Shown: in pieces, positions 135-23,074 of the stretch
How positions within the stretch are numbered: the first letter of the stretch is position 1
Layout: each line of letters starts with the position of its first letter
NCBI RefSeq assembly: GCF_000219625.1
Contig: NC_018204.1
Coordinates: 1 to 64,000, forward strand
Source: Zymoseptoria tritici IPO323
Taxonomy: Eukaryota; Ascomycota; Dothideomycetes; Mycosphaerellales; Mycosphaerellaceae
Direction: 5' to 3'
Length of the DNA: 64,000 bases
The notes under the pieces: generated by a model
The model's input: only the letters and a program-made list of their open reading frames with translations
What the model was told of the DNA's origin: nothing
Database searches by the model: none
Position numbers and translations under genes: made by a program

Positions 135-142
135 CCTAGGTA

Positions 143-1232: not shown

Positions 1233-2198
1233 AGCCTGCGGAAAACACGGGAGGTCGACCTGGGTCTCTAGAAGCACTTCGAGAAATGCCTCGCCATCGC
1301 TCGTAGGACCATAGGAACGACCGTGATCGACGAGTGGCGAGGCTTTTTGCAACAGAGTCGAGACCTATGCCGGCGGGATAGGGACGAGGGGGAGACAGCG
1401 TTCGTCAAGGACGAGAGGCAGGAGGAGAGGCGGGAGGTGGTCGCCGCGGCATATCGGGAGTACTGTACGGCCGTGGATTGCGAGGTGGGGATCTGGCGGT
1501 CGAACTTTGAGTTTCGCCGCGCGACAGTGCGCCTGGCGGACTAGCTGGACCTCTACAAGAAGCTCCCGCCGCGAGGATCGTCGCAGACGACGGCGACGGT
1601 ACTTCCGGACAAAACGCCCTCCGCGAGGGGGGCCCTCTTCCGGGAGATGCGTCCGGACTGGACCAACAGACTCCCCGCTGGCTTTACGAAAGAGGACGTA
1701 GTACAGGAGGGCCTGGGGACGGAATGGAACGCCTTTGAGCGTGCGATCAAGGTGGGGAGGCGCTGGAGGAGGTTCGTGAGGGTTCTAAACCTTGACGCCC
1801 TGCTCCTTATCGACCTCGGGAGGGATCTGTCCTACATCCAGCACACCATCCCGCTTCCCGTTTTTGTCGCCTGGGTCCATCTCATCCGTCGAGTGCGGCC
1901 GGAGATTGCGCCGACGGCCGAGCGACTCCAGAGGTGGAGGTACTACGACCGCGCGCGAACTGCCGCGAAACCGTACGTGGCGAACCTGCGGCTCGAGATG
2001 CGCAGGTATCGCGAGCTGTCGCCGACGCAGCAGTTTGAATTCTCGGGCAGCGAGGACGGCGGGCCGCGGACGTGCGATCCGAGTGTCCTGTCGCAGCCTA
2101 GCAATGCGGTGACCGACGTCGACTGGGGTTCGTCGTTTTCGACCTTTCTGAACAACGAGGACGTAGGCGGAAGGGCTACGGAGGGACAGGATGGTTAA
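1233..2198 (+). pseudogene. Decayed reading frame, unidentified basic protein
   Basis: One frame stays protein-like from after a TAA at 1230 to the TAA at 2196-2198 and is broken by TAG at 1269-1271 and 1542-1544. Both TAGs fit RIP of CAG (glutamine). After 1647 there are 183 uninterrupted codons. The product is rich in W, R, E and L (for example WRRFVRVLNLDALLLIDLG near 1774-1830), mostly helical in appearance, and has no motif I recognise. It ends where the first monomer begins, so it may be part of the same long repeated unit. No start codon can be assigned: the first convincing stretch starts at GTG 1323. Confidence 0.4.
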
Positions 2199-2750
2199 GA
2201 GGAAGCGCGGAGGAGATGAGGTCTAGCGAGTTATCCAAGTATAGATTTGATCCAGACCGGTCCGGCTCCTCTGATTCGTCGGCCGCAAACTCTAAGCCCC
2301 ACGTCTTGGTCAATTGACCAAGGTGGGTCCGTGCCCGGTCACGTGGGCCCAGAAGCGCACTGCTGAACTGTCCCACCCGGACTCCTCCCTCCCTTCTACG
2401 ACCTCCTCCGCGGTAATTGCCTCTATCTCCTGCACAGCGAACTCCTCCGTCTCGTCCGCCTCGACGCGGATTTCGTTGAATCCGAGTCTGCTCGAGGGTA
2501 AAACAAGCTCTTATAGATACGACATGGAAGATTTTTAATGGACAGTTCTTCTCGTAATTGCCCGGTCTCGGAGCCCGTCTTTATTGCGAAAGAAACCGTC
2601 ACAAGGTTCAGAAGTGAGGTTTTCCAAGTATGCGACGAGCGTCGGATTCGTCTTGCTGCCCCGACTTGCCGGCAGACCCTTTACGAAGGATTTTCGGGTT
2701 TCGACCACAACTAACAACACCCGAGCAAGACATAGTACTGCCGCGGAAGA
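2189..2750 (+). repeat. 5' monomer 1
   Basis: This is the first of a tandem series, each starting with GGATGGTTAAGAGGAAGCG and containing the palindrome block, a GTGGGCCCAGAAGCG segment, the GATACGACATGGAAGA segment and an ending in GCAAGACATAGTACTGCCG. It is 562 bp long. Tandem monomers upstream of LINE ORFs are known in other families (for example mouse L1), where they act as promoters. That role here is inference. Confidence 0.75.
2305..2322. promoter_or_regulatory. 18-bp perfect palindrome CTTGGTCAATTGACCAAG, recurrent
   Basis: The sequence equals its own reverse complement. It recurs at 2867-2884, 2984-3001 and 4661-4678 (perfect), and with point changes at 4544-4561, 5148-5165 and 15137-15154. 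Most differences are G to A or C to T. It always follows CTCTRAGCCCYACG. A dimeric DNA-binding protein site or a cruciform is possible; no function is proven. Confidence 0.8.
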
Positions 2751-3351
2751 GGATGGTTAAGAGGAAGCGCGGAGGAGATGAGGTCTAGCGAGTTATCCAA
2801 GTATAGATTCGATCCAGACCTGTCCGGCTCCTCTGATTCGTCGACCGCAAACTCTGAGCCCTACGTCTTGGTCAATTGACCAAGGTGGGTCCGTGTCCGG
2901 TCGCGTGGACGAATCGGCCGCGACGGGAGGGCCGCTGCGTCCTCCCCTGCCTATTGGCTGGCCGCAAACTCTGAGCCCCACGTCTTGGTCAATTGACCAA
3001 GGTGGGTCCGTGCCTGGTCACGTGGGCCCAGAAGCGCACTGCTGAACTGTCCTACCCGGACTCCTCCCTCCCTTCTACGACCTCCTCCGCGGTAATTGCC
3101 TCTATCTCCTGCACGGCGAACTCCTCCGTCTCGTCCGCCTCGACACGGATTTCGTTGAATCCGAGTCTGCTCGAGGGTAAAACAAGCTCTTATAGATACG
3201 ACATGGAAGATTTTTAATGGACAGTTCTTCTCGTAATTGCCCGGTCTCGGAGCCCGACTTTGTTGCGAAAGAAACCGTCACAAGGTTCAGAAGTGAGGTT
3301 TTCGAAGTATGCGACGAGCATCGGATTCGTCTTGCTGCCCCGACTTGCCGG
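2751..3351 (+). repeat. 5' monomer 2, left part (interrupted by hAT)
   Basis: It has the same start as monomer 1 but carries an internal duplication of about 117 bp, so two palindromes occur 117 bp apart (2867 and 2984). It is cut at CTTGCCGG (3344-3351) by the hAT element; the remainder is 4342-4427. The uninterrupted equivalent is seen in monomer 1 near 2668. Confidence 0.8.
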
Positions 3352-4341
3352 CAGTAAGCTTGTTGTATTGGATTGTATTGTATATGAGGGTGGTGACAAT
3401 ACAATACAACGTGTATCTTGGCAACATACAGTGGATATCCACTGTATACAACACTCTTAGACCTCATCGTCCACCACTGTTGCTTGTGAGTCTCCTTAAG
3501 CAGTGCAGAAGGTTGTGAAGCCGGCTGTTGTATCGCTCATGAATGAGCTTGTTGTCTGACCATCTATAGACTTCTTAATGTCCTCGTCGTCGTCAAATGC
3601 TAGTGTTGTTGCTCCGGCTCTTGTTGTCTTAATTAGAGGTCTATATGCACTGCGAAGGAACGCATAAGCCTCGATAATGTCGCCATAGAGCTGTGAACGG
3701 CGGTAGTCAATCATATCTCTGCCGGAGCTGAATAAGCGCTTAGGGTTGTCGCTTATGAGGGGGACTAAAAGGCAGTCGAGTGCCATTCGTGAGAGGCATG
3801 GCCACTGACGGCGACGAGCCATCCACCAAGCAATGGCGTCGAATAGTAGTGTGCGTTCGCACAACGAGTGTATTCAGTGCCCTTGATCTTAAAGGAGTCC
3901 GGCTGAAGGGCCTTGTCGAATACAGCGCTGCTCTCACAGAGCGTAACATAGTCGGAGGTGCGATCCTTGCGTGGTAGCAGTTGCCAGCCTGCTGTCGAGG
4001 GTGTTAAGGCTAAAGATGAGGCCATGTTGATGGCAATGGTATTGTTACAATAGTTACAAGAGCAGTGGATTAATAGCTAACTTCTCAGGTGCAGACTCTG
4101 TTCATGCAGTGCAACAACACCGGCGCAGACTCCGAATACACCTCTGAAAACACCACCTCCGAATACACTACCATAAACATAGCCCTTAAAACCATGCCTA
4201 CTATCACCGGATACAGCTGTATTGTATCCAGCCGTACAGCACGACAATACAATACACCAGCCTTAAGGTGAGGATCCACGACAGCTGTATATACGACAAT
4301 ACAATACAATACAACAAGGATACAATACAACAAGCTCACTG
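3352..4341 (-). mobile_element. hAT DNA transposon, internally decayed, 990 bp
   Basis: The ends are inverted repeats: CAGTAAGCTTGTTGTAT at the left and, read inward from the right, CAGTGAGCTTGTTGTAT (one mismatch in 17). It is flanked by 8-bp direct repeats CTTGCCGG (3344-3351) and CTTGCCCG (4342-4349). Monomer 1 shows the empty site CTTGCCGG followed by CAGACC. An 8-bp duplication and CAGTG-type ends are hAT hallmarks, and the interior encodes an hAT transposase C-terminus. Subterminal regions hold many ATACAATACA repeats. Confidence 0.9.
3496..4025 (-). pseudogene. hAT transposase C-terminal fragment
   Basis: The minus-strand frame from 3864 to 3496 contains a classic hATC dimerisation region: W(P)CLSRMALDCLLVPL, then S-D-N-P-K-R-L-F-S-S-G-R-D-M-I, then a conserved R..L..D.IEA..LRS helix. 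This matches the C-terminal dimer domain of hAT transposases. Upstream sequence to 4025 continues in another frame (AQ/YSTPLLGGWL-like), so a frameshift separates the parts. The RNase H-like catalytic core is absent. The fragment cannot make a working transposase, so the element would need one supplied in trans. Confidence 0.85.
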
Positions 4342-4427
4342 CTTGCCCGCAGACCCTTTACGAAGGATTTTCGGGTTTCGACCACAACTAACAACACCCG
4401 AGCAAGACATAGTACTGCCGCGGAAGA
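4342..4427 (+). repeat. 5' monomer 2, right part
   Basis: This resumes monomer 2 after the hAT target duplication, with GCAGACCCTTTACGAAGGAT matching 2674 onwards in monomer 1. It runs to the next GGATGGTGAAG start at 4428. Confidence 0.8.
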
Positions 4428-5034
4428 GGATGGTGAAGAGGAAGCGCGGAGGAGATGAGGTCCAGCGAGTTATCCAAGTATAGATTCGATCCAGACCTGT
4501 CCGGCTCCTCTGATTCGTCGACTGCAAACTCTGAGCCCCACGTCTTGGTCAATTAACCAAGGTAGGTCCGTATCCGGTCGCGTAGACGAATCGGCCGCGA
4601 CGGGAGGGCCGCTGCGTCCTCCCCTGCCCATTGGCTGGCCGCAAACTCTGAGCCCCACGTCTTGGTCAATTGACCAAGGTAGGTCCGTGCCTGGTCACGT
4701 GGACATAGAAGCGCACTGCTGAACTTTCCTACCCGGACTCCTCCCTCTCTGCTACGACCTCGCCGTCTCCTCCGCTCCGAACTCCTCCATCTCCTAGACT
4801 CCGACGTGGATTTCGTGCAATCCAAATCTGCTAGCGGGCAAATGAAGATCTGATATATACGATATCGAAGATTAAAAACAGACAATTCTTCTTGTTATAA
4901 CCCGCACTCGGAGCTTGTATTAGTTTCGAAAGAACCCGTCGTAAGGTTAAGAAGTTAGGTTCTAAAAGTATACGACGAGCCTCGAATTCGTCTGTTCGCC
5001 CCGACTAGTCGGCAGACCCTTAAGAAGGATTTTC
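4428..5034 (+). repeat. 5' monomer 3
   Basis: The start is the same as in the other monomers, with the 117-bp internal duplication (palindromes at 4544, with one change, and 4661). The second half diverges from monomers 1-2. Its sequence from about 4909 (CTCGGAGCTTGTATTAG) is where copy 2 becomes homologous (14501 onwards). Confidence 0.7.
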
Positions 5035-5404
5035 GATAGTTAAGAGGAAGCGCGAAGGAGACGAGGTCCAGCGAGTTGTCGAAAGAGCCCTGCTCCAGAC
5101 CCGTCCGGCTCCTCTAATTAGTCGACCGCAAACTCTAAGCCCCACGCCTTGGTCAATTAACCAAGGAGGGTCTGTGTCCGGTCGCTGGGACCAATTGGCG
5201 CACCGCTGAACTTCCCGCTGAGACTCCTCCCTCTCTGCTACAACCTCGCCGTCTCCTCCGCTGGGATTGCCTCTATAGCCTGCACTGCGAACTGCTCTAC
5301 CTCCTCCGCCTAAACGCGGATTGTATCGCTTTCCGGAGCCATAGCTGAAGTCTACCCTTCTCACGATATAGACGATGCTAGGGCAGGCCGGCTACGGATT
5401 ACGG
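5035..5404 (+). repeat. 5' monomer 4, partial
   Basis: It begins with a mutated start (ATAGTTAAGAGGAAGCG) and contains the palindrome variant at 5148-5165. It passes into unique leader sequence and then the minisatellite. In copy 2 the matching stretch is split by a MITE at 14678-15066. Confidence 0.7.
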
Positions 5405-6113
5405 GTGTGGGCGGATTTCTCGCCTAATGCCGGGATAGGCGGATTTCCAGCCCACCTTGCCGCTAGGCGGATTTCTCGCCCAATGCCGGGATGGGCGGAT
5501 TTCCAGCCCACCTTGCCGCTAGGCGGATTTCTCGCCTAATGCTAGGATGGGCGGATTTCCAGCCCACCTTGCTGCTGGGCGGATTTCCAGCCCACCTTGC
5601 CGCTGGGCGGATTTCTCGCCCAATGCCGGGATGGGCGGATTTCCAGCCCACCTTGCCGCTAGGCGGATTTCTCGCCTAATGCCGGGATGGGTGGATTTCC
5701 AGCCCACCTTGCCGCTGGGCGGATTTTCCGCCTAATGCCGGGATAGGCAGCCTCCGCCTAAAAGCAAAACGGAAACTTCTAAGAATTATGGCTTTCTGCT
5801 TTTACCTCTCGTATCTCGCGTACATAGCTAATTTCAAAGATTCTGAGAACACGGAGAGTAACTCCAGTATAAGAAGTTCCTTTCTATGTGTCTATATTCA
5901 ATTTGAGATCGTTGTTGTGGTGTCAAAAAAGGTCGAGAAACTTGAGGTGTCGCTGCTAGACTGTGTGTCGGAATTTCCGTTTTGGCTTCTACACCTTGGG
6001 TAGATTTCCAGCCCACCTTGCCGCTAGGCGGATTTCTCGCCCAATGCCGGGATGGGTGGATTTCCAGCCCACCTTGCCGCTGGGCGGATTTCTCGCCTAA
6101 TGCTAGGATGGGC
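5405..6113 (+). repeat. 28/56-bp minisatellite in the LINE leader
   Basis: Two related 28-bp half-units alternate: GGCGGATTTCTCGCCTAATG with CCGGGATA, and GGCGGATTTCCAGCCCACCT with TGCCGCTA. The array is open in several frames on both strands purely because of its periodicity, so the short ORFs here are not called as genes. It is split by a 229-bp insertion (5761-5989) and resumes at about 5998. Confidence 0.9.
5761..5989. mobile_element. MITE-like insertion with TA flanks, 229 bp
   Basis: It interrupts the minisatellite, which is continuous in copy 2. The ends are imperfect inverted repeats: AAAGCAAAACGGAAAC at the left and, read inward from the right, GAAGCCAAAACGGAAAT. A TA sits on each side (5759-5760 and 5990-5991). 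This suggests a small non-autonomous Tc1/mariner-type element. There is no coding content. Confidence 0.6.
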
Positions 6114-6201
6114 GGAGAGCTGACCTAGCAGCCGAACACGTAAGCGGTATACACCTCCTGCTCGACGCTCAAGAACAGCCACCGTAGAAACCTCTACGGA
6201 C

Positions 6202-6860: not shown

Positions 6861-8804
6861 GTGATTGTGAGAAGGACGACCACACCCCGGCCCTATAAGA
6901 GCCGGATGTGTTCCCTCCTCTCTGGAGCCTCGCTACCACCTGTTTACGCTCTTGGCCTCGGTTTTCCTCTGCGGTGGAGACTTCGAACTATCCGTGAGCA
7001 CTCTCTGCCTAGGTTGCCCTCTCCTTCGAGTGCCTCCTACTACCGATCCCGACTCGTTACTTTGCCGACCTCTCCCTCGACGTTCCTCGTGGCTTCCTCC
7101 TCCCCTCTACCCTCAGCGTCGCCCTCTCTGCCCTCTAATCCTCGGATGTTATCTAAACCGTCGACGAGCGCGGTACGGCCCTAGGAAGGTCTGACGGCCT
7201 TTGCAGACGCCCTCTAGGAGCTCTATAAGGGCGTCATCCCGTGCGGCGGCGAGATCGACTACTTTAGCGTCCTGAGGAACAAGACCGGACATCCCGATAC
7301 GGAAGGACAATACTACCGCACCTTCGAGTGTAAGAAGTGTCGTACGAACAAAAGGCGTACTGTCAAGGCGTGGATCAAGAGCGTCACCGCGGAAATCGGC
7401 CGGTCGAGACTTACGCTTGTGGCGTAAACGATCCTGGACTAGCTTCGTGACTATAGTGAGGATACGGCCTAGCTCGTTGCCTAGATTGAAGATCGACTGG
7501 AGGAGCCGGTGACCGCGCCGGCGAAGCGAGCACTCGAGTCCGAGTCTTCGATCGAGACGGCGTCCACGGATTGTCGGTTAAGGAAGACGATCCGGCGTAA
7601 GGAGGACGTGTTCCTGGATATTCCCTCTACGGATCTTCCTTCTACGAGCATCCCTTCGACGAAGATTCCGTCGACGAATCTTCCTTCCACAGACATTCCG
7701 TCTACAGACATTCCTTCTACGAGGCTCCCTACCGACATCCCTTTGACTGGGCTGCCTTCGATCGACATCCCCTTAACGATCCCTACCGTCCTCGTCCCGG
7801 AGACCGACCCTGCTACGATTCTAGTCGACCCTGTACCGAAGCCTATTGTACAGATACCCTTCTTTTAGAAATACGCCGAGGCCTGCCTGATCCGCGCGGC
7901 GAAGGAGACGAAGCGATCGGTTGACCGCCTCCTGTATACCCTAGGCGAAGGTCCTCCTTATCGCTCGGACGAAGGTCCTCCTTATTGCTCGAGTGAAGAT
8001 CCTCTGGACCCTCCTGGACCTAAAGACAGCGCGAGCGAGCACCGGAAGGAATCGAGACCCGCCACGAACGGAGCCCCACTGCCTGGCCGGAACAATGCGC
8101 GAGTAGAGTCGATCGAGGAGAGATAGCGGAGGAAGAGTCTTCCGCACCGTTCCGTCGAGGAGAAGCGCGGAGGGAAGAGTGTTCCTCCCGAGGTGCGACC
8201 CTACGACCTCTTTCCTAGTAAGGACTACGACCTTCTCTCGCCCTTTTCTACGGCATCCGTCCCTCCTCCCCTCGTGCCCTCTCCGGACACGCCCTCTCCT
8301 GCAAAGGCGAAGGAGCTTACTCCCTTTCCGTTCTCTTCGTCGGGACGGTAGAGGCTGTGGATCGCGGACCTGGCTGCGCGTGCCGAACTAGTGACGCCCT
8401 CCCCGAAAGCGAAGACCTTCCGGATTCTCTCTGTGGAGCCGAAGCCACGAACGAAACCGACCTCTCCTTTAGCGGACCGTAAGCGGAAACCACTCTAACC
8501 CCGCTCTGTAAACCTTCCTGGGAGATTGTCTGCGGATTAGGTCCGCGAGTTCGTCGATCGCTATCGAGAAGCCGATAACAAATTCAAAAGGCGAGTGGTA
8601 CGGTAGAAGGCGAAGAGTGCCGGCGTCTTCGACGAGTTTAAAGCCGAGCTAATACGGTAGGGGCTGGAAGAGGAGCCGGCGGGACGGGAGGATGGCCCAG
8701 GCTCGAAGAGAGAGACTCGAGGAGCATCCTCTAAGAGAGAAAGTCGAGAGGTATCCGGGGGAGGCGAGTCCTCTCGCGGGTCGCGAGACCAGGAGGAATG
8801 CTAG
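6861..8804 (+). pseudogene. LINE ORF1 (gag-like), copy 1
   Basis: One frame runs about 648 codons to TAG 8802-8804 with several internal TAGs where glutamine or tryptophan is expected (for example 7182 and 7866). Order: an S/P-rich N-terminus; a conserved segment around 7190-7400 including ELYKGVIPCGGEIDYFSVL and FECKKCRTNKRR (a possible CxxC metal site); an (I/L)-P-S-T-x repeat (7617-7790); a charged P/S/R-rich C-terminal half. It overlaps the ORF2 start by about 110 nt in another frame, as is common in LINEs. No canonical CCHC knuckle or RRM was seen. ORF1 proteins bind element RNA and form the RNP; that role is inferred from position. Confidence 0.6.
7617..7790 (+). repeat. IPST/LPST 15-bp coding repeat in ORF1
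   Basis: About ten degenerate copies of a 15-bp unit (ATTCCTTCTACGGAC-like) encode I/L-P-S-T-D/S/K/N/R pentapeptides. The same array is in copy 2 (17380-17550) with RIP-type changes. Such S/T/P pentapeptide repeats are usually unstructured. Confidence 0.85.
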
Positions 8805-11800
8805 GATTGGATGTATTAACATCCGGGGCTTGGGGGATGATAGGTGGCCGATCCTGGCGGCGCTAATTAACGACGACGTCCTCGACTACCTCTTTATCGT
8901 CGAGACCTGGTTCGTCGAGTATAAGAAGCGCCGAGCGGATTACCACGTGATTGCGACCACGGTGAAGCCCGATACGGTGCCGAGAAAGGGTCGCTTGGGC
9001 TGTGGGATTCTGGTGATGGGGACGGTACGCGCGCGAAGTTGGCTTACCGGCAAGGTGCAGATTATTAGGACGGACGCTATAACCCTGCCGACGGACCGGG
9101 GAACGATTAGCGGAGTCTACTTTCCCCCTAAGCGGAAGCCGGATGAGGTCCGGTCTACGCTCGAGGCGGTTGCCGGCTCGGATGTCGTTCTCGGAGATAT
9201 TAACATCTGCTTTAGTAAGATGTCTCTCTAGAGCGGGAAGGCGTCGCCGCTTCTAAGACGGAAGGTCGTCTTGCGATGGATCGAGGACTCCGCGATAACC
9301 TATCTGATGCCGATCTAGGAGCCGATCACAATTGCGGACGCCGTATGCGAGAAACAACTGACGACTGACTACTGCTTTGTCCGCCGGACGCTGCCGCATG
9401 CGACGCTGGCTCTACCGCGACCGACGGAGAAGATGAATACCGACTATGTCTACTGGCTCTACCTCTAGCTGGACCCGACTGCGGGTACTCCGGGTGGATC
9501 AGCTGTGCCGTATCAACTTGGATCAGCCGTGCCGTATCAACTTCGACGCTATGCGATAAGCCGGCTGAACGACGACGATACGGCGCAGGCGCTCTGCTAT
9601 GGCTGGGAGAGAAGGGCGCGGCATCGATAGCATCTGTACTATATGAGCGCCAATGTGGACAAGCGGAATGCGGAAATCGTGTCGCTCTGCCAGCAGGTAA
9701 GCGAAGCCGTGCTGGGACTCGCCTCTGCGCGTCGTCGAAATCGTCCTCCGGGTAGACGAAAGGCGGAGGATATAAGTAACGGAGGCGGAGAGAAGAAGAA
9801 TAGAGACGGAGAGAAGAAGGATAGAGGCGGAGAGAAGAAGAATGGAGACGGAGAGAAGAAGGATAGAGGCGGAGAGAAGAAGGATCGAGAGGGAGAGAAG
9901 AAGAATAGAGGTAGAGAGAAGAACGACAGGCCTCGAAAGGCGATAACAGACCCGAAGCGAAAGCGAGCCGAGGATAATAACGACGCCGCTCGCAAGCCAA
10001 AGCGGCTACGCCGCCGTAGCAAGAAGAAGAAGGACTGGCGTCTCAAGGCGATGGCGAAGCCGAATCCGGACGCCGATGGCGGGACGCTCGAGACGGTCCG
10101 TCTCTATAAGAGAGCGCAGCGCCGCGCGAACGAGAACACACTGCTGGTGCTAACCCCGGCGGGGAAGGCGAGAGGGATGACGGCAATCGACGAGGTGACG
10201 GAGGGATTTGCCAGTCGATTCGTCTCGACGGCGACCCTCCCGGTACAGGAGATGTTTCCTGTCGACGATCGATCCGCCTCGCTCTCCTTCTCGATCGACG
10301 AGATAATGCAGGAGCTTACCTACCAGGATGCTACGAAGGCCTGCGGAAACGATAGGGTACACATCCGTCTAATAAAAACCCTCGCGACGACGAGCTTCCT
10401 CTAGATCCTAGCCGCCCTCTACAATTCCTGTCTCCGGAATAGTAAGACGCCGCGGAGCTAGAACGAAACTATCGTCTGTCTGGTCGTCAAGGACAAGACC
10501 CGATAGGAGGATAGTACGATGCCGGCGAAGGACGCTAATAACGTTCGTCCGATCTCGCTGGTAATGATGTTTCGAAAGGTCTTCGAGCGCCTACTCCTCC
10601 GGCGCTTTAATGGTAGGATATAGGCGAGGATGCATCCCAACTAGGCGGGATTTCGAAGTCACCACTCTACTGTGACGAACGCTGCGGTCGTCCATGCCCT
10701 CCTCGAATCGAGCCGGATTACACACGCCATGTTCCTCGATTTTCAAGCCGCCTTTGACGTTGTGGATCATGTACTGCTCGCGGACGTTCTACGCCGGCGG
10801 AGATGTCCGGAGAACATGCTAGCTCTAATTGCGAGCCTCTGCTTTTTCGACGTCTGGTCCTTTGTCGTTTCGGATTGTATAGCTTCTCGGTAGTTTCCGC
10901 GGACGAGGGGAGTTCTGTAGGGCTCACCCCTCTCGCCCTATCTGTTTAACATCTTTATTAATAGCTTGCTTGAGGACTTGAATCGACCTGGGACACTCGC
11001 CCTGGCCGGCTCTTCCGACGTGATGCCCGCGGCGCCGCCGATTCCTCGCGCGCTGTTCTTCGCCGATGATAGTGTTCTCCTCGCTAGCGACTTGGACGAG
11101 GTGCGTCTACTGATCCAGATCCTCGAGCGCTAGTCCTCCGCCAACCGCATCGCCCTGAACATTAAAAAATGCGCCTATCTGGCTCCGGCGTCTTCGCAGG
11201 AGGCAATCTACCTCTTTGGTGCAGAGGTACCGAGGAGAGAGGTATATACCTACCTCGGATTTCCCGTGACGGCGCGAGGGATTGACTTGAGGAGGCACCT
11301 TAAGAGCCGGCTCGAACAGGCCGGGAAACGAAGCGACTTCCTGACCCTCGACGCGGATGGTTGGGGCTTTACGCATCGCCTGCGAGTCTATCAGCAGTAT
11401 CTCGCACCGATGTTCGAGTATGGCGCGCCTCTCCTCGCGGCGTTTGCCGAGAACTCTCCTAAGTTCTGGGACGAGACGACCAAGGACGTTGCGAAGCTGA
11501 CGAAGTGGATCTCGGGTTATGCTTCTAACCCTCACTTTACTCGCAATCTCCTGGGAATCTCTGCCCTACCCTCGCGATTTAAAGCACTAAAAACTGGCTT
11601 TTAGGTCGTAAAGAAGCACGCTCCGGAAGAAAGTCCGCTGCGGAAGTTGGGATTACTGATCTGGAAACCTAAAGCGTTCTTCCGGCGCTTGACGGAGGAC
11701 AAGCTCTACGAGAAGTACCGCAAGACACCCGAGTCCTGGCCTCGCGACCGAAGCCTCAGCGAAGACCGCCGTTCTGTCCAGCGGTTCCTGCGCCAGGAGA

Positions 11801-12240: not shown

Positions 12241-12252
12241 TGCACACTGTCC

Positions 12253-12541
12253 TGAGTAGGACGTTAAAAGGCTCCGTCCGATGAGTAGGACGTTAAAAGG
12301 CTCCGTCCGATGAGTAGGACGTTAAAAGGCTCCGTCCGATGAGTAGGACGTTAAAAGGCTCCGTCCGATGAGTAGGACGTTAAAAGGCTCCGTCCGATGA
12401 GTAGGACGTTAAAAGGCTCCGTCCGATGGGTAGGACGTAAAGTGGCTCGGTCCGATGAGTAGGACGTAAAAAGGCTCCGTCCGATAAGTAGGACGTAAAG
12501 TGGCTCCGTCCGATAGGTAGGACGTAAAGTAGCTCCGTCGA
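12253..12541 (+). repeat. 29-bp VNTR in LINE 3' region, 10 units
   Basis: The unit is TGAGTAGGACGTTAAAAGGC plus TCCGTCCGA. The first six units are nearly identical. Later ones change to GGTAGGACGTAAAGTGGCTC. Copy 2 has about five units and the truncated copy about two and a half. Confidence 0.95.
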
Positions 12542-13456
12542 CCCGGGACGCAAAAGCGGAGATCATCCCTCGAGGATAAATTGGGCGTTTACCCTATCGA
12601 AAAGGAGTCTCTTCCCTCGAGATGAAAGTGGGCGTCCGATCGGTAGGACGTTAAAAGGCTGCGCTGCGACATAGGAGACGTGGGCGACTGGCAAGGCCCG
12701 GACTGGCTCCGCACCGGACGATCAACTCTATCCGGAAGGCCTAGCAGTGGATGTAAGGCGTGTACCCTAGATCTGCGGCTGCTTCCTCTCAAAGCCGGGG
12801 AGCGGGAGGAAGAAAACTGGTACCTCTGCAGAGCAGTAGGAGGCTTGGAAGAATGCGAAGGCGACGGCGTAGTAGGGGAGAGGAGTAGACGACGACGATC
12901 GCTAGAGGAGGAATTCTAGCCGAAGGGAAGACGGCTCTCCCTAAACCGTTCGGGAAGCACTTGTGGACTGGTGTACAAGCGGCTCGATCGGAATCGAATG
13001 TCTCCAACAGTGGATACGCCGGACAGAGGGAGGACAGAGCTCTACCGGACGGTCTTAAAGCGGGATGTTCCCCCTCAACGAGACGGGGTTACAGTTTCGG
13101 GCGGATGAGGAGACGCACACCTTGTCCGTCACCTGGGAGGTTTGGAAAACTAAGGTACGATGGACGGTAAGCAATTGCCGGAGCGATATTGTGCGTTAGG
13201 ATGCGGATTAGCCCATCGGTAGTCTCTCTTTTTGGCGGTTTGGTCAACTCGGGAGATGGTAAAAAGGACACCGTAAAACGTGGTTGGGCTAGGAGTAGCT
13301 GCGGTGCCGTGCATCGCGAGGCGCTTTACATGGGAGCGTAGGTCTGTTTCCTCCCCTCTAAAGACGGCCAAAAGAGCCAGGAGCAAGGGCTTGGATGGGG
13401 CTTTAGTTCAGATCAGGTGCAAAGGTAGACTAGCCTATATAAACAAGTACAATGAA
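12542..13456 (+). other. Conserved LINE 3' region, possibly with a third reading frame
   Basis: This 915-bp segment is shared, nearly base for base, with 13543-14458 and 22136-23051. From 12680 (GTG, no ATG) one frame is open for 80 codons (GDWQGPDWLRTGRSTLSG...). After a TAG it stays mostly open to the telomere repeats (SPTVDTPDRGRTELYRTVLK, GVAAVPCIARRFTWERRSVS). In the truncated copy (13682-14485) fewer stops remain in the same frame. This could be a decayed ORF3 or an untranslated region open by chance. The high conservation alone is expected of a 3' UTR recognised by the reverse transcriptase. Confidence 0.4.
13436..13443 (+). promoter_or_regulatory. TATATAAA box at LINE 3' end
   Basis: TATATAAA lies 21 bp before the telomere repeats and is identical in the other two 3' ends (14438-14445 and 23031-23038). 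It points towards the downstream neighbour, so any transcript would start in the telomere repeats or the next element. Promoter activity is inferred from the match alone. Confidence 0.45.
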
Positions 13457-13474: not shown

Positions 13475-14458
13475 GGCTCCGTCCGATGAGTAGGACGTAA
13501 AGTGGCTCCGTCCGATGGGTAGGACGTAAAGTAGCTCCGTCGACCTGGGACGCAAAAGCGGAGATCATCCCTCGAGGATAAATTAGGCGTTTACCCTATC
13601 GAAAAGGAGTCTCTTCCCTCGAGATGAAAGTAGGCGTCCGATCGGTAGGACGTTAAAAGGCTGCGCTACGACGTAGGAGACGTGGGCGACTGGCGAGGCC
13701 CGGACTGGCTCCGCACCGGACGATCAACTCTATCCGGAAGGCCCAGCAGTGGATGTAAGGCGTATACCCTAGATCTGCGGCTGCTTCCTCTCAAAGCCGG
13801 GGAGCAGGAGGAAGAAAACTGGTACCTCTGCAGAGCAGTAGGAGGCTTGGAAGAATGCGAAGGCGACGGCGTGGTGGGGGAGAGGAGTGGACGACGACGA
13901 TTGCTGGAGGAGGAATTCTAGCCGAAGGGAAGACGGCTCTCCCCAAACTGTTCGGGAAGCACTTGTAGACTGGTATACAAGCGGCTCGATCGGAATCGAA
14001 TGTCTCCGACAGTAGATATGCCGGACGGAGGGAGGACAGAGCTCCACCGGACAGTCTTAAAGCGGGATGTTCCCCCTCAACGAGACGGGGTTACAGTTTC
14101 GGGCGGATGAGGAGACGCACACCTTGTCCGTCACCTGGGAGGTTTGGAAAACCAAGGTACGATGGACGGTGAGCGATTGCCGGAGCGATATTGTGCGTTA
14201 GGATGCGGATTAGCCCATCGGTGGTCTCTCTTTTTGGCAGTTTGGTCAACTCGGGAGATGGTGAAAAGGACACCGTAAAATGTGGTTGGGCTAGGAGTAG
14301 CTGCGGTGCCGTGCATCGCGAGGCGCTTTACGTGGGAGCGTGGGTCTGTTTCCTCCCCTCTGAAGACGGCCAAAAGAGCCGGGAGCAAGGGCTTGGATGG
14401 GGCTTCAGTTCAGATCAGGTGCAAAGGTAGACTAGCCTATATAAACAAGTACAATGAA
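13475..14458 (+). mobile_element. 5'-truncated LINE copy (3' end only)
   Basis: It starts inside a 29-bp VNTR unit (GGCTCCGTCCGATGAG) right after the telomere repeats and continues to the same 3' end as copy 1. Only the last 984 bp of the element are present. It is close to copy 1 in sequence, with scattered TG/TA and CA/TA differences. Severe 5' truncation is the usual product of incomplete target-primed reverse transcription. Confidence 0.9.
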
Positions 14459-14497
14459 CCCCTAACCCTAACCCTAACCCTATAACCCTACCCCTAA
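14459..14497. repeat. Interstitial telomere repeats, second junction
   Basis: CCCCTAACCCTAACCCTAAC continues to CCCTATAACCCTACCCCTAA: about six units with slight degeneration, in the same orientation as the terminal telomere. It separates the truncated copy from copy 2. Confidence 0.95.
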
Positions 14498-14677
14498 GCT
14501 CGGAGCTTGTATTAGTTTCGAAAGAACCCGTCGTAAGGTTAAGAAGTTAGGTTCTAAAAGTATACGACGAGCCTCGAATTCGTCTGTTCGCCCCGACTAG
14601 TCGGCAGACCCTTAAGAAGGATTTTCAATAGTTAAGAGGAAGCGCGAAGGAGACGAGGTCTAGCAAGTTGTCGAAAG

Positions 14678-15066
14678 TAGTACTCTTGTTCGTATAGTTA
14701 CTAGTAGACATTAGCCCCTTACTACTACTACTAAGAGATTGCGAGGTCTATACCAACTCCACTGCCAAGTGTGCTATTCTTAGTTATCATTTGGGGGCCA
14801 AAATGTAACTTTTTAGTAGCAACGATACTATCGATCCGAAGCCTTATAAGAGGGACGCAAATCGATACATTCGGCTTAATTGCTACTTCCGTAGATCGAG
14901 CCCTACAGCCTATACTTCTAGACCTCGCCGTCGCCGTTTCTACTATTTCTGCTAGTTACCGGTAAAGGATATGTCTCGCACTACCAGATAAATCGCTTAC
15001 CAAACCAACCGGTAACCGTACCAACTACCACTACTAACTAAATCTACTACACTAATAAGAGCACTG
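14678..15066. mobile_element. hAT-type MITE, 389 bp, with 8-bp duplication
   Basis: It is flanked by GTCGAAAG on both sides (14670-14677 and 15067-15074). Copy 1 has the single, empty GTCGAAAG near 5078. The ends are TAGTACTCTTGTT at the left and, read inward from the right, CAGTGCTCTTATT. The left differences fit RIP of CAGTGCTC. There is no convincing coding frame. It contains clusters of ACTACTACTA and ACCAACCGGTAACCG. Confidence 0.85.
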
Positions 15067-15398
15067 GTCGAAAGAGCCCTGCTCTAGACCCGTCCGGCTC
15101 CTCTAATTAGTCGACCGCAAACTCTAAGCCCTACGCCTTAGTTAATTGACTAAGGAGGGTCCGTATCCGGTCGCTAGGACTAATTGGCGCACCGCTGAAC
15201 TTCCCGCTAAGACTCCTCCCTCTCTGCTACAACCTCGCCGTCTCCTCCGCTGGGATTGCCTCTATAGCCTACACTGCGAACTGCTCTACCTCCTCCGCCT
15301 AAATGCGGATTGTATCGCTTTCCGGAGCCATAGCTGAAGTCTACCCTTCTCACAATATAGACAATGCTAGGGCAGGCCGGCTACGGATTACGGGTGTA

Positions 15399-15874
15399 GG
15401 CGGATTTCTCGCCTAATGCTGGGATAGGCGGATTTCTAGCCTACCTTGCCGCTAGGCGGATTTCTCGCCTAATGCCGGGATAGGTAGATTTCTAGCCTAC
15501 CTTGCCGCTAGGCGGATTTCTCGCCTAATGCCGGGATAGGCGGATTTCTAGCCCACCTTGCCGCTAGGCAGATTTCTCGCCTAATGCTAGGATAGGTAGA
15601 TTTCCAGCCCACCTTGCCGCTAGGCGGATTTCTCGCCCAATGCCGGGATAGGTGGATTTCTAGCCTACCTTGCCGCTAGGCGGATTTCTCGCCTAATGCT
15701 AGGATAGGTAGATTTCTAGCCTACCTTGCCGCTAGGCGGATTTCTTGCCTAATGCCGGGATAGGCGGATTTCTAGCCTACCTTGCCGCTAGGCGGATTTC
15801 TCGCCTAATGCCGGGATAGGTAGATTTCTAGCCTACCTTGCTGCTAGGCGGATTTCTCGCCTAATGCTAGGATA
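15399..15874 (+). repeat. 28/56-bp minisatellite in LINE copy 2 leader
   Basis: It has the same half-units as 5405-6113 with many C to T changes (CCAGCCCACC becoming CTAGCCTACC). The array is uninterrupted and longer than either block in copy 1, with at least eight 56-bp units. Confidence 0.9.
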
Positions 15875-16624
15875 GGCGGAGAGCTAACTTAGCAGCCGAA
15901 CATATAAGCGGCATACACCTCCTACTCGACGCTTAAGAACAGCTACTATAGAAACCTCTACAGACATAGAAGTCCTACGATATAAGAGCCTGCGACGCTA
16001 GCGCTACTACGTACAGCTTTGTTACGCTTTCTACCGGGTGCCCGATAAGGAGGGGGTAGTACTAAATGTAGGCAGGAATTACTACGACGGGAGAGTACTA
16101 CACTACGTCGTCGAGCTCCTCCTTAGCAAAAATACGCGGATAGCGAGTCTAACGTGGATTTAACGGCCTATAGAGGACGGCTCGGGCACGAGAACGGTAC
16201 GAGGGAGAACAGATTAACGAGAGTAGGGCGGAGGAGGAGGAGGGAGAAGACGTAGACACAGGAGATTCGAAAGTAAGACGGTAAGGCAACAGACAAGACC
16301 GGAGACGAGCTAGGGGAAGGGAGAGGAAGATAGGAGGATAAAGAGGATATAGGCCTAGCAGGACGGGATAGCATTAAGATAAGGACAATATAACGATGCC
16401 TAGAGAGGACGATATAACGATGCCGGGGACAGCCTATTCTCGGACCGGGGAGTAGAGGAAGAGACGACAAGTAGGACGAGTAAGTACGGAGGGGAGGGTA
16501 GCCCTTTATACTACTACCTCGTCGAGTGCGACGATTATAATTAAGCCGTAGACCCCGGTAGACGGCGAGATAAGAGGATAGCTATCGACGATAACTATCG
16601 ACGATCGTAAGGCTAACCCTACTT

Positions 16625-18568
16625 GTAATTGTAAGAAGGATAACTACACCCTAGCCCTATAAGAGCCGGATATGTTCCCTCCTCTCTAGAGCCTTACTAC
16701 TACCCGTTTACGCTCTTAGCCTCGGTTTTCCTCTACGGTAGAGACTTCGAACTATCCGTAAGCACTCTCTACCTAGGTTGCCCTCTCCTTCGAGTGCCTC
16801 CTACTACCGATCCCGACTTGTTACTTCGCCGACCTCTCCTTCGACGTTCCTCGTAGCTTCCTCCTCCCCTCTACCCTCGGCGTTGCCTTCTCTGCCCTCT
16901 AACCCTCGGATGTTATCTAAACCGTCGACGAGCGCGGTACGGCCCTAGGAAGGTCTAACAGCCTTTGCAAACGCCTTCTAGGAGCTCTATAAGGGCGTTA
17001 TCCTGTACGGCGGCGAGATCGACTACTTTGGCGTCCTAAGGAACAAGACCGGACATCCCGACATAGAAGGACGATACTACTATACCTTCGAGTATAAGAA
17101 GTGTTGTACGAACAAAAGGCGTACTATTAAGGCGTAGATCAAGAGCATTACCGCGGAAATTAGCCGGTCGAGACTTACGCTTATAGCGTAAACGATCCTA
17201 GACTAGCTTCGTAACTATAGTAAGGATACGGCCCAGCTCGTTACCTAGATTAAAGATCGACTAGAGGAGCCGGTAACCGCGCTAGCGAAGCGAGCACTAG
17301 AGTCCAAGTCTTCGATCGAGACAGCGTCCGCGGATTGTCGGTTAAGGAAGACGATCTAGTATAAGGAGGACGTGTTCCTAGATATTCCCTCTACGGATCT
17401 TCCTTCTACGAGCATCCCTTCGACGAAGATTCCGTCGACGAATCTTCCTTCTATAGACATTCCGTCTATAGATATTCCTTCTACGAGGCTCCCTACCGAT
17501 ATCCCTTTAACTAGGCTGCCTTCGATCGACATCCCCTTAACGATCCCTACTATCCTCGTCCTAGAGACCGACCCTACCGCGATTCTAGTCGACCCTATAC
17601 TAAAGCCTATCGTACAGATACCCTTCTTTTAGAAATACGCTAAGGCCTGCCTAATCCGCGCGGCGAAGGAGACGAAGCGATCGGTTAACCGCCTCCTATA
17701 CACCCTAGGCAAAGGTCCTCCTTATTGCTCGGACGAAGGTCCTCTTTATTACTCGAGTAAAGATCCTTTAGACCCTCCTAGACCTAAAGATAGCGCGAGC
17801 AAGCACCGGAAGGAATCGAGACCCGCTACGAATAGAGCCCTACCGCCTAGCTAGAACGACGCGCGAGCAGAGTCGATTAAGGAGAGATAGTAGAGGAAGA
17901 GTCTTCCGTACCGTTCTATCGAGGAGAAGCGCGGAGGGAAGAGTGTTCCTCCCGAGGTACGACCCTACAACCTCTTTCCTAGTAAGGACTACGACCTTCT
18001 CTCGCCCTTTTCTATAGTATCCGTCCCTCCTCCCCTCGTGCCCTCTCCGGATACGCCCTCTCCCGCAAAGGCGAAGGAGCTTACTCCCTTTCTGTTCTCT
18101 TCGTCGGGACAGTAGAGGCTGTAGATCGCGGACCTAGCCGCGCGTACCGAACCGGTAACGCCCTCCCCAAAAGCGAAGACCTTCTAGATTCTCTCTGCGG
18201 AGCCGAAGCTACGAACGAAACCGACCTTTCCTTTAGTAGACTATAAGCGGAAACTACTCTAACCCTACTCTATAAACCTTCCCGGGAGATCGTCTACGGA
18301 TTAGGTCCGCGAGTTCGTCGATTACTATCGAGAAGCTAATAACAAATTCAAAAGGCGAGTAGTACGGCAGAAGGCGAAGAGTGCTAGCGTCTTTAACGAG
18401 TTTAAAGCCGAGCTAATATAGTAGGGGCTAGAAGAGGAGCCGGCGGGACGGGAGGATAGCCTAGGCTCGAAGAGAGAGACTCGAGGAGCATCCTCTAAGA
18501 GAGAGAGTTGAAAGGCATCTAGGGGAGGCGAGTCCTCTCGCGGGTCGCGAGACTAGGAGGAATGCTAG
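16625..18568 (+). pseudogene. LINE ORF1 (gag-like), copy 2
   Basis: It is colinear with ORF1 of copy 1 and stays in one frame for about 648 codons to TAG 18566-18568. Many more TAA/TAG stops are present. The CxxC segment reads EYKKCCTNKRR, with the first Cys changed to Tyr (TGT to TAT). The PST repeat (17380-17550) survives in an 86-codon open stretch. No expression is plausible. Confidence 0.65.
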
Positions 18569-21500
18569 GATTAGATGTATTAACATCCGGGGCTTAGGGG
18601 ATAATAGGTAGCCGATCCTAGCGGCGCTAATTAACAACGACGTCCTCGACTACCTCTTTATCGTCGAGACCTAGTTCGTCGAGTATAAGAAGCGCCGAGC
18701 GGATTACCGCGTAATTGCGACTATAGTAAAGCCCGATATAGTGCCGAGAAAGGGTTGCTTAGGCTGTAGGATTCTAGTAATAAGGACAGTATGCGCGCGA
18801 AGTTAGCTTACTAGCGAGGCGTAGATTATTAGGACGGACGCTATAACCCTGCCGACGGACTAGGGAACGATTAGCAGAGTCTACTTTCCCCCTAAGCGGA
18901 AGCCGGATAAGGTCCGGTCTACGCTCGAGGTAGTTGCCGGCTCCGATGTCGTTCTCGGAGATATTAACATCTGCTTTAGTAAGATGTCTCTCTAGAGCGG
19001 GAAGGCGTTGCCGCTTCTAAGACGGAAGGTCGTCTCGCAATAGATTAAGGACTCCGCGATAACCTATCTAATGCCGATCTAGGAGCCGATTACGATTGCG
19101 GACGCTGTGTATAAGAAACAACTAACGACTGACTACTGCTTTGTCCGCCGGACGCTGCCGTATACGACGCTAGCTCTACCGCGACCGACGGAGAAGATAA
19201 ATACCGACTATATCTACTAGCTCTACCTCTAGCTAGACCTAACTACGGGTACTCCGGGTAGATTAGCCGTGCCGTATTAACTTCGACACTATATAATAAG
19301 CCGGCTAAACGACGACGATACGGCGTAGGCGCTCTACTATAGCTAGGAGAGAAGGGCGCGGCATCGACAGCATCTATACTATATAAGCGCCGATGTAGAT
19401 AAGCAGAATACGGAAATCGTATCGCTCTACTAGTAGGTAAGCGAAGCCGTACTAGGACTCGCCTCTACGCGTTGTTAAAATCGTCCTCCAGGTAGACAAA
19501 AGGCGGAGGATATAAGTAACGGAGGCGGAAAGAAGAAGAATAGAGACGGAGAGAAGAAGGATAGAGGCGGAGAGAAGAAGAATAGAGATAGAGAGAAGAA
19601 GGATAGAGGCGGAGAGAAGAAGGATCGAGAGGGAGAGAAGAAGAATAGAGGTAGAGAGAAGAACGATAGGCCTCGAAAGGCGATAATAGACCCGAAGCGA
19701 AAGCGAGCCGAGGATAATAACGACACTGCTCGCAAGCTAAAGCGGCTACGCCGCTATAGCAAGAAGAAGAAGGACTAGCGTCTTAAGGCAATGGCGAAGC
19801 CGAATCCGGACGCCGATAGCGGGACGCTCGAGACGGTCCGTCTCTATAAGAGAGCGTAGCACTGCGCAAACGAGAACATACCGCTAGTGCTAACCCTAGC
19901 AGGGAAGGTAAGAGGGATAACGGCAATCGACGAGGTAACAGAGGGATTTGCTAGTCGATTTGTCTCGACAGCGATCCTCCTAGTACAGGAGATGTTTCCT
20001 ATCGACGATCGATCCGCTTCGCTCTCCTTCTCGATCGACGAGATAATATAGGAGCTTACCTACTAGGATGCTACAAAGGCCTGCGGAAACGATAGGGTAC
20101 ATATCCGTCTAATAAAAACCCTCGCGACGACGAGCTTCCTCCGGATCCTGGCCGCCCTCTACAATTCCTATCTCCGGAATAGTAAGACGCCGCGGAGCTA
20201 GAACGAAACTATCGTCTATCTAGTCGTTAAGGACAAGACCCGACGGGAGGATGGTACGATGCCGGCGAAGGACGCTAACAACGTTCGTCCGATCTTGCTA
20301 GTAACGATGTTTCGAAAGGTCTTCGAGCGCCTGATCCTCTGGCGCTTTAATAGTAGGACATAGGCGAGGATGCATCCTAACTAGGCGGGATTTCGAAGTT
20401 ACTACTCCACTATAACGAACGCCGCAGTTGTCTATGCCCTCCTTAAATCGGGCCGGATTATATACGCTATGTTCCTCGATTTTCAAGCCGCCTTTAACGT
20501 TGTAGATTATGTACTGCTCGCGGACGTTCTACGCCGGCGGAGATGTCCGGAGAACATGCTAGCTCTGATTACGAGCCTCTACTTTTTCGACGTCTGGTCC
20601 TTTGTCGTTTCGGATTATATAGCTTCTCGGTGGTTTCCGCGGATAAGGGGAGTTTTGCAGGGCTTACCCCTCTCGCCCTATCTGTTTAACATCTTTATCG
20701 ATAGCTTACTCGAGGACTTAAATCGACCTAGGACACTCGCCCTAGCCGGCTCTTCTAACGTAATACCCGTAGCGCCGCCAATTCCTCGCGCGCTATTCTT
20801 CGCCGATAATAGTGTTCTCCTCGCTAGCGACTTAGACAAGGTGCGTCTACTAATCTAGATCCTCGAGCGCTAGTCCTCCGCCAACCGCATCGCCCTAAAC
20901 ATTAAAAAATGCGCCTATCTAGCTCCGGCGTCTTCGTAGGAGGCGATCTACCTCTTTAGTACAGAGGTACCGAGGAGAGAGGTATATACCTACCTCGGAT
21001 TTCCCGTAACGGCGCGAGGGATTAACTTAAGGAGGCACCTTAAGAGCCGGCTCGAACAGGCTAGGAAACGAAGCGACTTCCTAACCCTCGACGCGGATGG
21101 TTAGGGCTTTACGCATCGCCTACGAGTCTATAAGTAGTATCTCGCACCGATGTTTAAGTATAGCGCGCCTCTCCTCGCGGCGTTTGCCGAGGACTCTCCT
21201 AAGTTCTAGGACGAGACGACTAAGGACGTTGCGAAGCTAACGAAGTAGATCTCGGGTTATGCTTCTAACCCTTACTTTACTCGTAATCTCCTAGGAATCT
21301 CTGCCCTACCCTCGCGATTTAAGGCACTAAAAACTAGCTTTTAGGTCGTAAAGAAGCACGCTCCAGAAGAAAGTCCGCTAAGGAAGTTAGGATTACTAAT
21401 CTAGAAACCTAAAGCATTCTTCCGGCGCTTAACGGAGGACAAGCTCTACAAGAAGTACCGCAAGACACCCGAGTCCTAGCCTCGCGACCGAAGCCTTAGC

Positions 21501-21980
21501 GAAGACTGCCGTTCTGTCTAGCGGTTCCTACGCTAGGAGAGAGAGGAAGATATAGCCGAAGAGGCCAAGAAGTGGAGCCTAACCCGGATTATACCGGGAG
21601 AAAGCCGCCTAAAGTGGGACTTACGAGGAGCCGATTACTTTTTAAAGGCGCCGCGGTCCTTCTAGAAGCGCTTCCTCTAGTATCGGCGTAGAACCTTCTA
21701 TACCTATAGTTTCTACGTCTGTACAAGCAAATTCATCCGAAGATACAAGACTTGCTACTAGGAAAACAGGACGAGCTAGCTCTCGAGGAAGGAACGACGG
21801 GCGAAGTAGAAGATGCATAAGAAAATAGGCACTACGAATACGAAGTTTACCAAGGTAGACTTCCTTCTAAATACAGGATGCTAGGAGCGAGCTAACGAGA
21901 TCCTCGAGCGAATCTCGACGAAGATTACGAAGGAGGAAGCTACAAAGGAGGAAGCGGAGGAAGCGGCGGCACAGACCTAG
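18456..21980 (+). pseudogene. LINE ORF2: APE endonuclease - reverse transcriptase, copy 2
   Basis: It matches ORF2 of copy 1 over its length. The start codon is ATA (18456-18458). Endonuclease motifs are recognisable but have stops. The RT core from 20469 to 20858 remains open (FLDFQAAFNVVDY, GVLQGLPLSPYLFNIFIDSL). The catalytic FADD is FADN because GAT became AAT at 20808-20810. At some sites this copy keeps the coding residue where copy 1 has a stop (CGG at about 20142 versus TAG at 10402; TGG at 20632 versus TAG). The two copies therefore decayed at least partly independently. It ends at TAG 21978-21980. Confidence 0.85.
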
Positions 21981-21992
21981 TGCACACTGTCC

Positions 21993-22135
21993 TAAGTAGG
22001 ACGTTAAAAGGCTCCGTCCGATGGGTAGGACGTAAAGTAGCTCCGTCCGATAGGTAGGACGTAAAGTGGCTCGGTCCGATAGGTAGGACGTAAAAAGGCT
22101 CCGTCTAATAGGTAGGACGTAAAGTGGCTCTGTCG
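21993..22135 (+). repeat. 29-bp VNTR, copy 2, about 5 units
   Basis: The unit is the same as at 12253-12541, with about half the number of units and TG to TA changes (TAAGTAGGACG, TAGGTAGGACG). Confidence 0.9.
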
Positions 22136-23051
22136 ACCCGGGACGTAAAAGCGGAGATCATCCCTCGAGGATAAATTAGGCGTTTACCCTATCGAAAAGG
22201 AGTCTCTTCCCTCGAGATGAAAGTAGGCGTCCGATTAGTAGGACGTTAAAAGGCTGCGCTGCGACGTAGGAGACGTAGGCGACTAGCGAGGCCCGGACTG
22301 GCTCCGCACCGGACGATCAACTCTATCCGGAAGGCCTAGCGGTAGATGTAAGGCGTGTACCCTAGATCTGCGGCTACTTCCTCTTAAAGCCGGGGAGCGG
22401 GAGGAAGAAAACTAGTACCTCTGTAGAGCAGTAGGAGGCTTAGAGGAATGCGAAGGCGATAGCGTAGTAGGGGAGAGGAGTAAACGACAACGATCGCTAG
22501 AGGAGGAATTCTAGCCGAAGGGAAGACGGCACTCCTTAAACTGTTCGGGAAGCACTTATAGACTAGTATGCAAGCGGCTCGATCGGAATCGAATGTCTCC
22601 GACAGTAGATACGCCGGACGGAGGGAGGACAGAGCTCCACTAGACGGTCTTAAAGCGGGATGTTCCCCCTTAATAAGACGGGGTTACAGTTTCGGGCGGA
22701 TGAGGAGACGCACACCTCGTCCGTCACCTAGGAGGTTTGGAAACCTAAGGTACGATAGACAGTAAGCGATTGCCGGAGCGATATTTTACGTTAGGATGCG
22801 GACTAGCCTATCGGTAGTCTCTCTTTTTAGCGGTTTGGTCAACTCGGGAGATAGTAAAAAGGACACCGTAAAACGTAGTTAGGCTAGGAGTAGCTGCGGT
22901 GCTGTGCATCGCGAGGCGCTTTACGTAGGAGCATAGGTCTGTTTCCTCCCCTCTAAAGACGGCCAAAAGAGCTGGGAGCAAGGGCTTGGATAGGGCTTTA
23001 GTTCAGATCAGGTGCAAAGGTAGACTAGCCTATATAAACAAGTACAATGAA
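22136..23051 (+). other. Conserved LINE 3' region, copy 2
   Basis: It is homologous to 12542-13456. The possible third frame is closed by many stops here. TATATAAA lies at 23031-23038, before the CCCTAA junction. Confidence 0.8.
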
Positions 23052-23064
23052 CCCCTAACCCTAA
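23052..23064. repeat. Interstitial telomere repeats at LINE copy 2 3' end
   Basis: CCCCTAACCCTAA is followed by GCTAACCC and the satellite. It is the third LINE 3' end joined to C-strand telomere repeats in the same orientation. Confidence 0.9.
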
Positions 23065-23074
23065 GCTAACCCTT

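What the first reader, a model, noticed from the sequence alone, without database searches (positions are those of the whole stretch)
2189..23064. A fungal APE-type LINE whose 3' ends sit on telomere repeats: candidate telomere-targeting retrotransposon
Three independent 3' ends (13456, 14458, 23051) stop at the same base and continue straight into CCCTAA repeats. All copies point the same way, 3' end away from the chromosome end. A telomere's free 3' end is the G strand; an RNA ending in CCCUAA could anneal to it and be reverse transcribed, giving exactly this orientation. Insect SART/TRAS (APE-type) and Drosophila HeT-A/TART, and fungal MoTeRs (restriction-like nuclease), are known telomeric elements. 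An APE-type one in a RIP-competent ascomycete would be unusual. The sequence shows geometry and junctions; mechanism is inference.
Basis: partly seen in the sequence, partly recalled or inferred. Interest (0 to 1): 0.92.

Follow-up and report, generated by a model that had tools for sequence, protein, structure and literature searches.

The report
Fungal LINE retrotransposon that targets telomeres
Chromosome ends of this fungus carry dozens of copies of a jumping gene that appears to copy itself onto telomere repeats, always facing the same way; the layout was noticed in 2014 but filed as another kind of element, while its enzyme looks like the LINE kind with an AP-type endonuclease.

The parts
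1..131 (+). terminal telomere array (CCCTAA)n, slightly degenerate at its inner end
138..2201 (+). upstream block with a broken reading frame (read-through 1050-2201 has 19 homologues of 237-452 aa). 28 subtelomeric matches in the genome, 23 of them 9.1-12.4 kb outside a LINE 3' end in the same direction. Belonging to the LINE itself is not settled
2188..5085 (+). repeated 5' units (starts near 2188, 2750, 4427, 5035), possibly the 5' UTR
   Evidence: self-comparison
3355..4333 (+). about 980-bp insert with similar inverted ends (MITE-like by eye), also present in other copies
   Evidence: read
5408..6116 (+). 56-bp tandem repeats (5408-5748 and 5997-6116) upstream of ORF1
7152..8813 (+). ORF1 region (read-through frame with stops), no Pfam match and no homologue found
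8776..12240 (+). ORF2 of copy A, one frame with RIP-type stops (start approximate)
8785..9490 (+). AP-endonuclease (EEP) domain of ORF2 (boundaries approximate, carried over from the relatives)
10528..11265 (+). reverse transcriptase (RVT_1, E 4.3e-25)
12241..13456 (+). 3' UTR of copy A with 29-bp tandem repeats (12253-12539) and fixed 3' terminus AAGTACAATGAA
13457..13474 (+). telomeric tract at 3' end of copy A (CCCCTAACCCTAACCCTA)
13475..14458 (+). copy B, 5'-truncated, starts in the 29-bp repeats
14459..14497 (+). degenerate telomeric tract at 3' end of copy B
14499..23051 (+). copy C, 5'-truncated at copy-A position about 4907, more strongly RIPed, with a stretch about 14678-15066 that copy A lacks
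23052..23064 (+). telomeric tract at 3' end of copy C

Best explanation
It is a family of APE-type LINEs specialised to telomeres. The 3' end of the element RNA is reverse transcribed from a 3' end of the telomeric G strand, starting right after ...TTAGGG, so that the antisense cDNA extends the chromosome outward. The copy often stops early (5' truncation, down to about 7 bases). The new end is then capped by telomerase with a fresh TTAGGG array, and the next copy can be added on top. Shown: location, orientation, junction base, many different events, telomere tracts at both sides of truncated copies, and APE + LINE-type RT in the family. Inferred: priming by the telomere 3' end, the role of the endonuclease (a nick in the repeats, or none because the natural overhang is used), pairing of a C-rich RNA end, and telomerase re-capping. 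The first two rivals below are the two variants of this explanation.
Against: Every ORF2 stretch listed in this genome has at least 1 stop (79 rows; 43 of 136 candidates scored), so activity now is not shown. No transcript, no enzyme test and no new insertion was seen. The relatives whose endonuclease is intact are not shown to be telomeric. Terminal erosion followed by healing could also make 5' truncations: other subtelomeric sequences end in telomere tracts too. Blocks upstream of several copies are shared between chromosome ends, so recombination also shapes these regions. Pfam and NCBIfam models do not score the endonuclease domain above cut-off.
Confidence: 0.9

Rival explanations
1. Variant 1, endonuclease-independent end attachment: the RNA anneals through a C-rich 3' end to the single-stranded overhang of a short or eroded telomere, HeT-A-like; the APE domain is not needed for this step.
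For: Tracts under the element are short (7-59 bp, median 24, 50 read) against terminal arrays with 90-162 bp of perfect repeats (15 ends read), and exact units are commonest next to the element (unit 2: 42 of 49, unit 4: 12 of 29). Terminal arrays outside the tip copies are not shortened.
Against: APE catalytic residues are conserved across the relatives. Telomere length control would restore the outer array in any case. A fixed register is equally expected from a sequence-specific nick.
Confidence: 0.45
2. Variant 2, nicking by the APE domain inside double-stranded telomere repeats followed by ordinary target-primed reverse transcription (SART/TRAS-like).
For: Domain with L1/TRAS1 endonuclease fold and conserved active site. 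Fixed junction after GGG of the G strand.
Against: No target-site duplication can be read in a tandem repeat. The short inner stump is not what uniform insertion into a 120-bp array would give, unless the inner part is preferred or tracts later shrink.
Confidence: 0.45
3. Segmental duplication: one ancestral LINE-telomere junction was spread by recombination between chromosome ends.
For: C1L, C1R and C2R share stretches of about 17 kb with the LINE. Two tract-and-flank pairs among 50 junctions are exact repeats. Dhillon et al. report long shared subtelomeres.
Against: 47 different flanks of 50, differing tracts, many different 5' break points.
Confidence: 0.03
4. Penelope-like element without endonuclease (the published filing).
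For: 3' telomeric repeats and orientation are as in telomeric PLEs (PMC4522978).
Against: APE/EEP domain present; RT profile finds R2 (7.6e-41) and LINE-1 ORF2p (7.8e-39), and no chain named telomerase or Penelope up to E 10.
Confidence: 0.02
5. The element inserts anywhere and only copies near telomeres survive.
For: Subtelomeres are repeat-rich.
Against: No internal copy among 83; base-precise telomeric junction and uniform direction cannot come from survival; another LINE survives all over the genome.
Confidence: 0.01

Closest known systems
Z. tritici non-LTR 'family 4' of Dhillon et al. 2014 (PMC4522978)
   Same: Almost certainly this family: limited to subtelomeres, 34 full-length + 49 truncated copies (83; I count 83 3' ends), 1-3 telomeric hexamers at the 3' end of all full-length and 38 truncated ones, 3' end away from the telomere, truncated copies in tandem.
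   Different: They filed it as a putative Penelope-like element lacking an endonuclease, 3.4-3.5 kb long. That length fits about the part from the 21-bp repeats to the 3' end (copy A 9825-13474); the endonuclease lies further 5'. Identity is by description; their sequence file was not read.
MoTeR1 (Magnaporthe/Pyricularia oryzae), FoTeR (Fusarium oxysporum), CNL1 (Cryptococcus)
   Same: Non-LTR elements at chromosome ends; MoTeR and FoTeR have the 5' end towards the terminus and FoTeR has telomere repeats after the 3' end and truncated copies; FoTeRs show RIP and VNTRs.
   Different: MoTeR and FoTeR have a restriction-like endonuclease C-terminal to the RT, and CNL1's RT groups with MoTeR; here an N-terminal AP-type endonuclease.
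SART and TRAS (Bombyx, R1 families)
   Different: Insect elements; relation of the RTs not tested here. SART and TRAS insert in opposite directions (PMC10088271 passage).
HeT-A/TART/TAHRE (Drosophila)
   Same: 3' end towards the centromere, head-to-tail arrays at ends (recalled).
   Different: There telomerase repeats are absent (recalled); here a CCCTAA array caps each of the 15 ends whose terminal array I read.

Membership tests
APE-type non-LTR retrotransposon (LINE) | N-terminal AP/EEP endonuclease with E, Y, D-x-N, D, DH catalytic set | tested here: met
   Residues conserved in intact relatives, fold match to L1-EN and TRAS1-EN. In the window copy two conserved H read Y, as RIP would give.
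APE-type non-LTR retrotransposon (LINE) | RT of the L1/R2 kind and 5' truncation | tested here: met
APE-type non-LTR retrotransposon (LINE) | assignment to a named clade (Tad1, L1, I, R1 ...) | not tested
   no reference RT set was at hand; no tree was built
Telomere-specific retrotransposon | all copies at telomere repeats with fixed junction | tested here: met
   83 of 83
Telomere-specific retrotransposon | observed transposition into telomeres | not testable with these tools
   needs long reads or a retrotransposition assay
Penelope-like element | GIY-YIG endonuclease, or none, with RT close to telomerase | tested here: not met
   APE domain present; Pfam shows RVT_1 and no GIY-YIG in the window frame and 8 relatives; RT profile matches R2 and L1 and no chain named telomerase. 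No Penelope reference was at hand.
CRE clade / MoTeR-FoTeR type | C-terminal restriction-like endonuclease, no APE | tested here: not met
   APE at the N-terminus. A C-terminal CxC..H..C motif is conserved in relatives; a restriction-like domain was not sought separately.
SART/TRAS (R1 clade) | R1-clade RT plus telomere specificity | tested here: inconclusive
   telomere specificity met, EN fold shared with APE LINEs in general; clade not tested

The most novel reading that the evidence does not exclude
An APE-type LINE of a telomerase-positive ascomycete that evolved telomere specificity independently of MoTeR/FoTeR and of SART/TRAS, and adds itself to short or freshly healed chromosome ends, so that it works as a second, RNA-templated way of extending ends beside telomerase.
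Probability: 0.35. Interest if true: 0.85.

Novelty: new variant of a known kind. Interest (0 to 1): 0.62.

Why it matters
The fungal telomere-targeted LINEs that I found in print either carry a restriction-like endonuclease (MoTeR, FoTeR) or group with one that does (CNL1). An AP-endonuclease LINE with the same target and geometry would be a separate invention of telomere targeting, in an organism for which a 19-isolate set of telomere-to-telomere genomes is in print (PMC9970103, abstract passage). It corrects a published class (Penelope-like, endonuclease-less) for a family with 3' ends on at least 35 of 42 contig ends of this genome (34, plus C13 right). The very short remnants between telomere tracts look like a direct record of aborted events, which makes the end-attachment versus nick question testable in long reads.

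Tried and rejected
Rejected: one ancestral junction copied around as the sole cause (47 of 50 flanks differ); Penelope-like; survival bias. Of 66 exact GAACCCCTAACCC places, two (C6:8368, C15:632709) proved not to be LINE ends when read, and one (C4:2869918) is ambiguous: a 3-nt remnant or a telomere variant; 63 are among the 83 ends.

Led nowhere: tRNA and Rfam scans of the window found nothing. ORF1 had no homologue at E 0.001. Pfam and NCBIfam miss the endonuclease domain in the close relatives: only E 0.04 and 0.06 in two of 8 and nothing in 3; some of the most distant hits (P0109 and others) do carry precomputed endonuclease labels. No relative in viral contigs; two weak hits in a bacterial MAG (L059, L060) were not used. 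The 5' end of the element could not be fixed: shared blocks run on upstream of the window's copy; one such block also has a 90% copy at internal C6:1269374, whose similarity ends at L039 3634. Whether RII_Cassini (LINE/I of a later Z. tritici paper) is this family could not be told. The plain Foldseek search was never served; the fold result is the VIA-align second look. No RT tree was built for lack of named references.

Literature: the searches for earlier reports were (listings). Of PMC4522978, PMC9970103, PMC8445621, PMC7014611, PMC8381367, PMC12810828, PMC13068351, PMC9453070 and PMC10088271 I saw passages; of PMC12857005 the abstract, passages and one whole section. PMC4700185 was not read (one search failed).
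Full report
What was checked. The window begins with a terminal (CCCTAA)n array. Three 3' ends of one repeat family stop at the same base (13456, 14458, 23051) and go on as CCCCTAACCC, i.e. one C plus CCCTAA units. The copies run from the telomere inward.

Whole genome. The window is C15:1-64000 of a genome of 39,686,251 bases in 21 contigs. Size and number agree with Z. tritici (Mycosphaerella graminicola) IPO323 as described in PMC4522978 (39.7 Mb, 21 chromosomes); the match of single chromosome lengths is recalled, not from a call. The 22-base 3' end, up to 3 mismatches, has 80 matches (41 forward, 39 reverse; reversed-pattern control 0). All forward ones have low coordinates and all reverse ones the high coordinates of their contig; 34 of 42 contig ends carry one or more, and the largest distance from an end is 85,374 bases among the 73 places whose contig length a call had printed. 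A junction pattern gives 82 matches: 79 of the 80 plus three very short remnants (C7:2664408, C9:19631, C13:1185637), which adds one more end (C13 right). The one missed (C4:2864069) was read directly and continues CCCCTAA. Together 83 places: 77 CCCCTAACCC, 3 CCCCCTAACC, and one each of CCCCTAATCC, CCCCGAACCC and CCCCTAAGTA. All 83 have the same direction relative to their chromosome end.

Control. A second LINE-like 3' end from the same subtelomere (an (AAAC)n tail; I take it to be the Tad1 family of PMC4522978, a label by inference) gave 373 candidates of which 40 were scored: spread over the chromosomes, 20 in each direction.

Independence. Fifty of the 83 junctions could be read with their flanks: tracts of 7-59 bp, median 24, and 47 different 10-base flanks. 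The exactness of the repeat units falls with distance from the element (unit 2 42 of 49, unit 3 24 of 38, unit 4 12 of 29). Terminal arrays read at 15 ends have 90-162 bp of perfect repeats. Many flanks are the same element again, cut at different points: 24 distinct break points from copy-A position 132 to 13432 abut telomere tracts (27 rows, three of them second rows for one junction; one point is the window's own copy A and two lie in the upstream block). At chromosome tips, short copies lie directly under the terminal array on C10L, C11R (two in tandem), C7L, C1R, C4L and C9R, and on C13R about 7 bases (AATGAA plus C) stand between a full array and four further repeats. A 14-base remnant stands between two tracts on C7R. 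Such stubs are what one expects if reverse transcription starts at the RNA 3' end on a telomere and aborts. Against this as the only cause: flanks that are other subtelomeric sequences are also cut at different points and capped by telomere repeats, so erosion or breakage with healing happens here as well. The remnant at C9:19631 is not flanked by telomere on its outer side but by the (AAAC)n tail of the other LINE.

Size of the element. Counts fall from 3' to 5': 83 ends, 43 RT stretches (a lower bound), 38 longer endonuclease-region matches (of 40 rows), 28 upstream-block matches (of 29 rows, the 29th being a 51-bp internal one). 23 of the 28 lie 9.1-12.4 kb outside a 3' end, the other five 17.8-26.7 kb. 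Since shared sequence goes on further, part of this may be a composite subtelomeric unit spread by recombination, and the true 5' end stays open.

Mechanism. The antisense strand of the element continues the telomeric G strand 5'-...TTAGGG-G-TTCATTGTACTT-3'. That is what priming by a G-strand 3' end gives, with the RNA ending in ...AAUGAAC or in a C-rich tail that pairs with the repeat. The outer side is telomere array in every tip copy read, so the new end is capped again, most simply by telomerase. Whether the 3' end is natural or made by the APE domain is not decided: the short inner stumps speak for short or eroded telomeres, the conserved active site for a use of the nuclease.

Known before. 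[quoted passage not shown] That length fits about the stretch from the 21-bp repeats to the 3' end only, which would explain how the endonuclease was missed (inference). MoTeR and FoTeR (PMC12857005) and CNL1 (PMC12810828) are the fungal telomere-targeted LINEs I found; MoTeR and FoTeR have a restriction-like endonuclease and CNL1's RT groups with MoTeR. A 2023 paper that lists telomere-associated elements names only MoTeR1 for fungi (PMC10088271, passages). My paper searches turned up no description of an APE-type one in fungi in what I looked at; the library lacks most subscription journals.

Verdict. Observation confirmed; interpretation supported in kind; geometry known since 2014, class new. 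Interest 0.62.

Noticed in passing
window 23072-24412: 11.8 copies of a 114-bp tandem repeat lie just inside the 3' tract of copy C.
   Followed up: no
window 1050-2201: A broken frame upstream of the LINE has 19 homologues (237-452 aa, precomputed Pfam label PF28402, one from Cladosporium fusiforme); the session's Pfam copy shows no such model in four of them.
   Followed up: partly
L007 3400-3520 (C9 near 19631): The (AAAC)n tail of another LINE is joined directly to a 14-base remnant of the telomeric LINE: an insertion into it or a chimeric transcript.
   Followed up: no
window 37517-43689 and 57831-64000: A diverged direct duplication of about 6 kb (81-84% identity).
   Followed up: no
junctions: The base after a telomeric tract is G in 23 of 50 flanks, for LINE and non-LINE flanks alike; may reflect how telomerase starts on a broken end.
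   Followed up: partly
C6:1269374-1270608: An internal chromosome-6 stretch, about 90% similar to a block repeated upstream of the LINE at many chromosome ends.
   Followed up: partly
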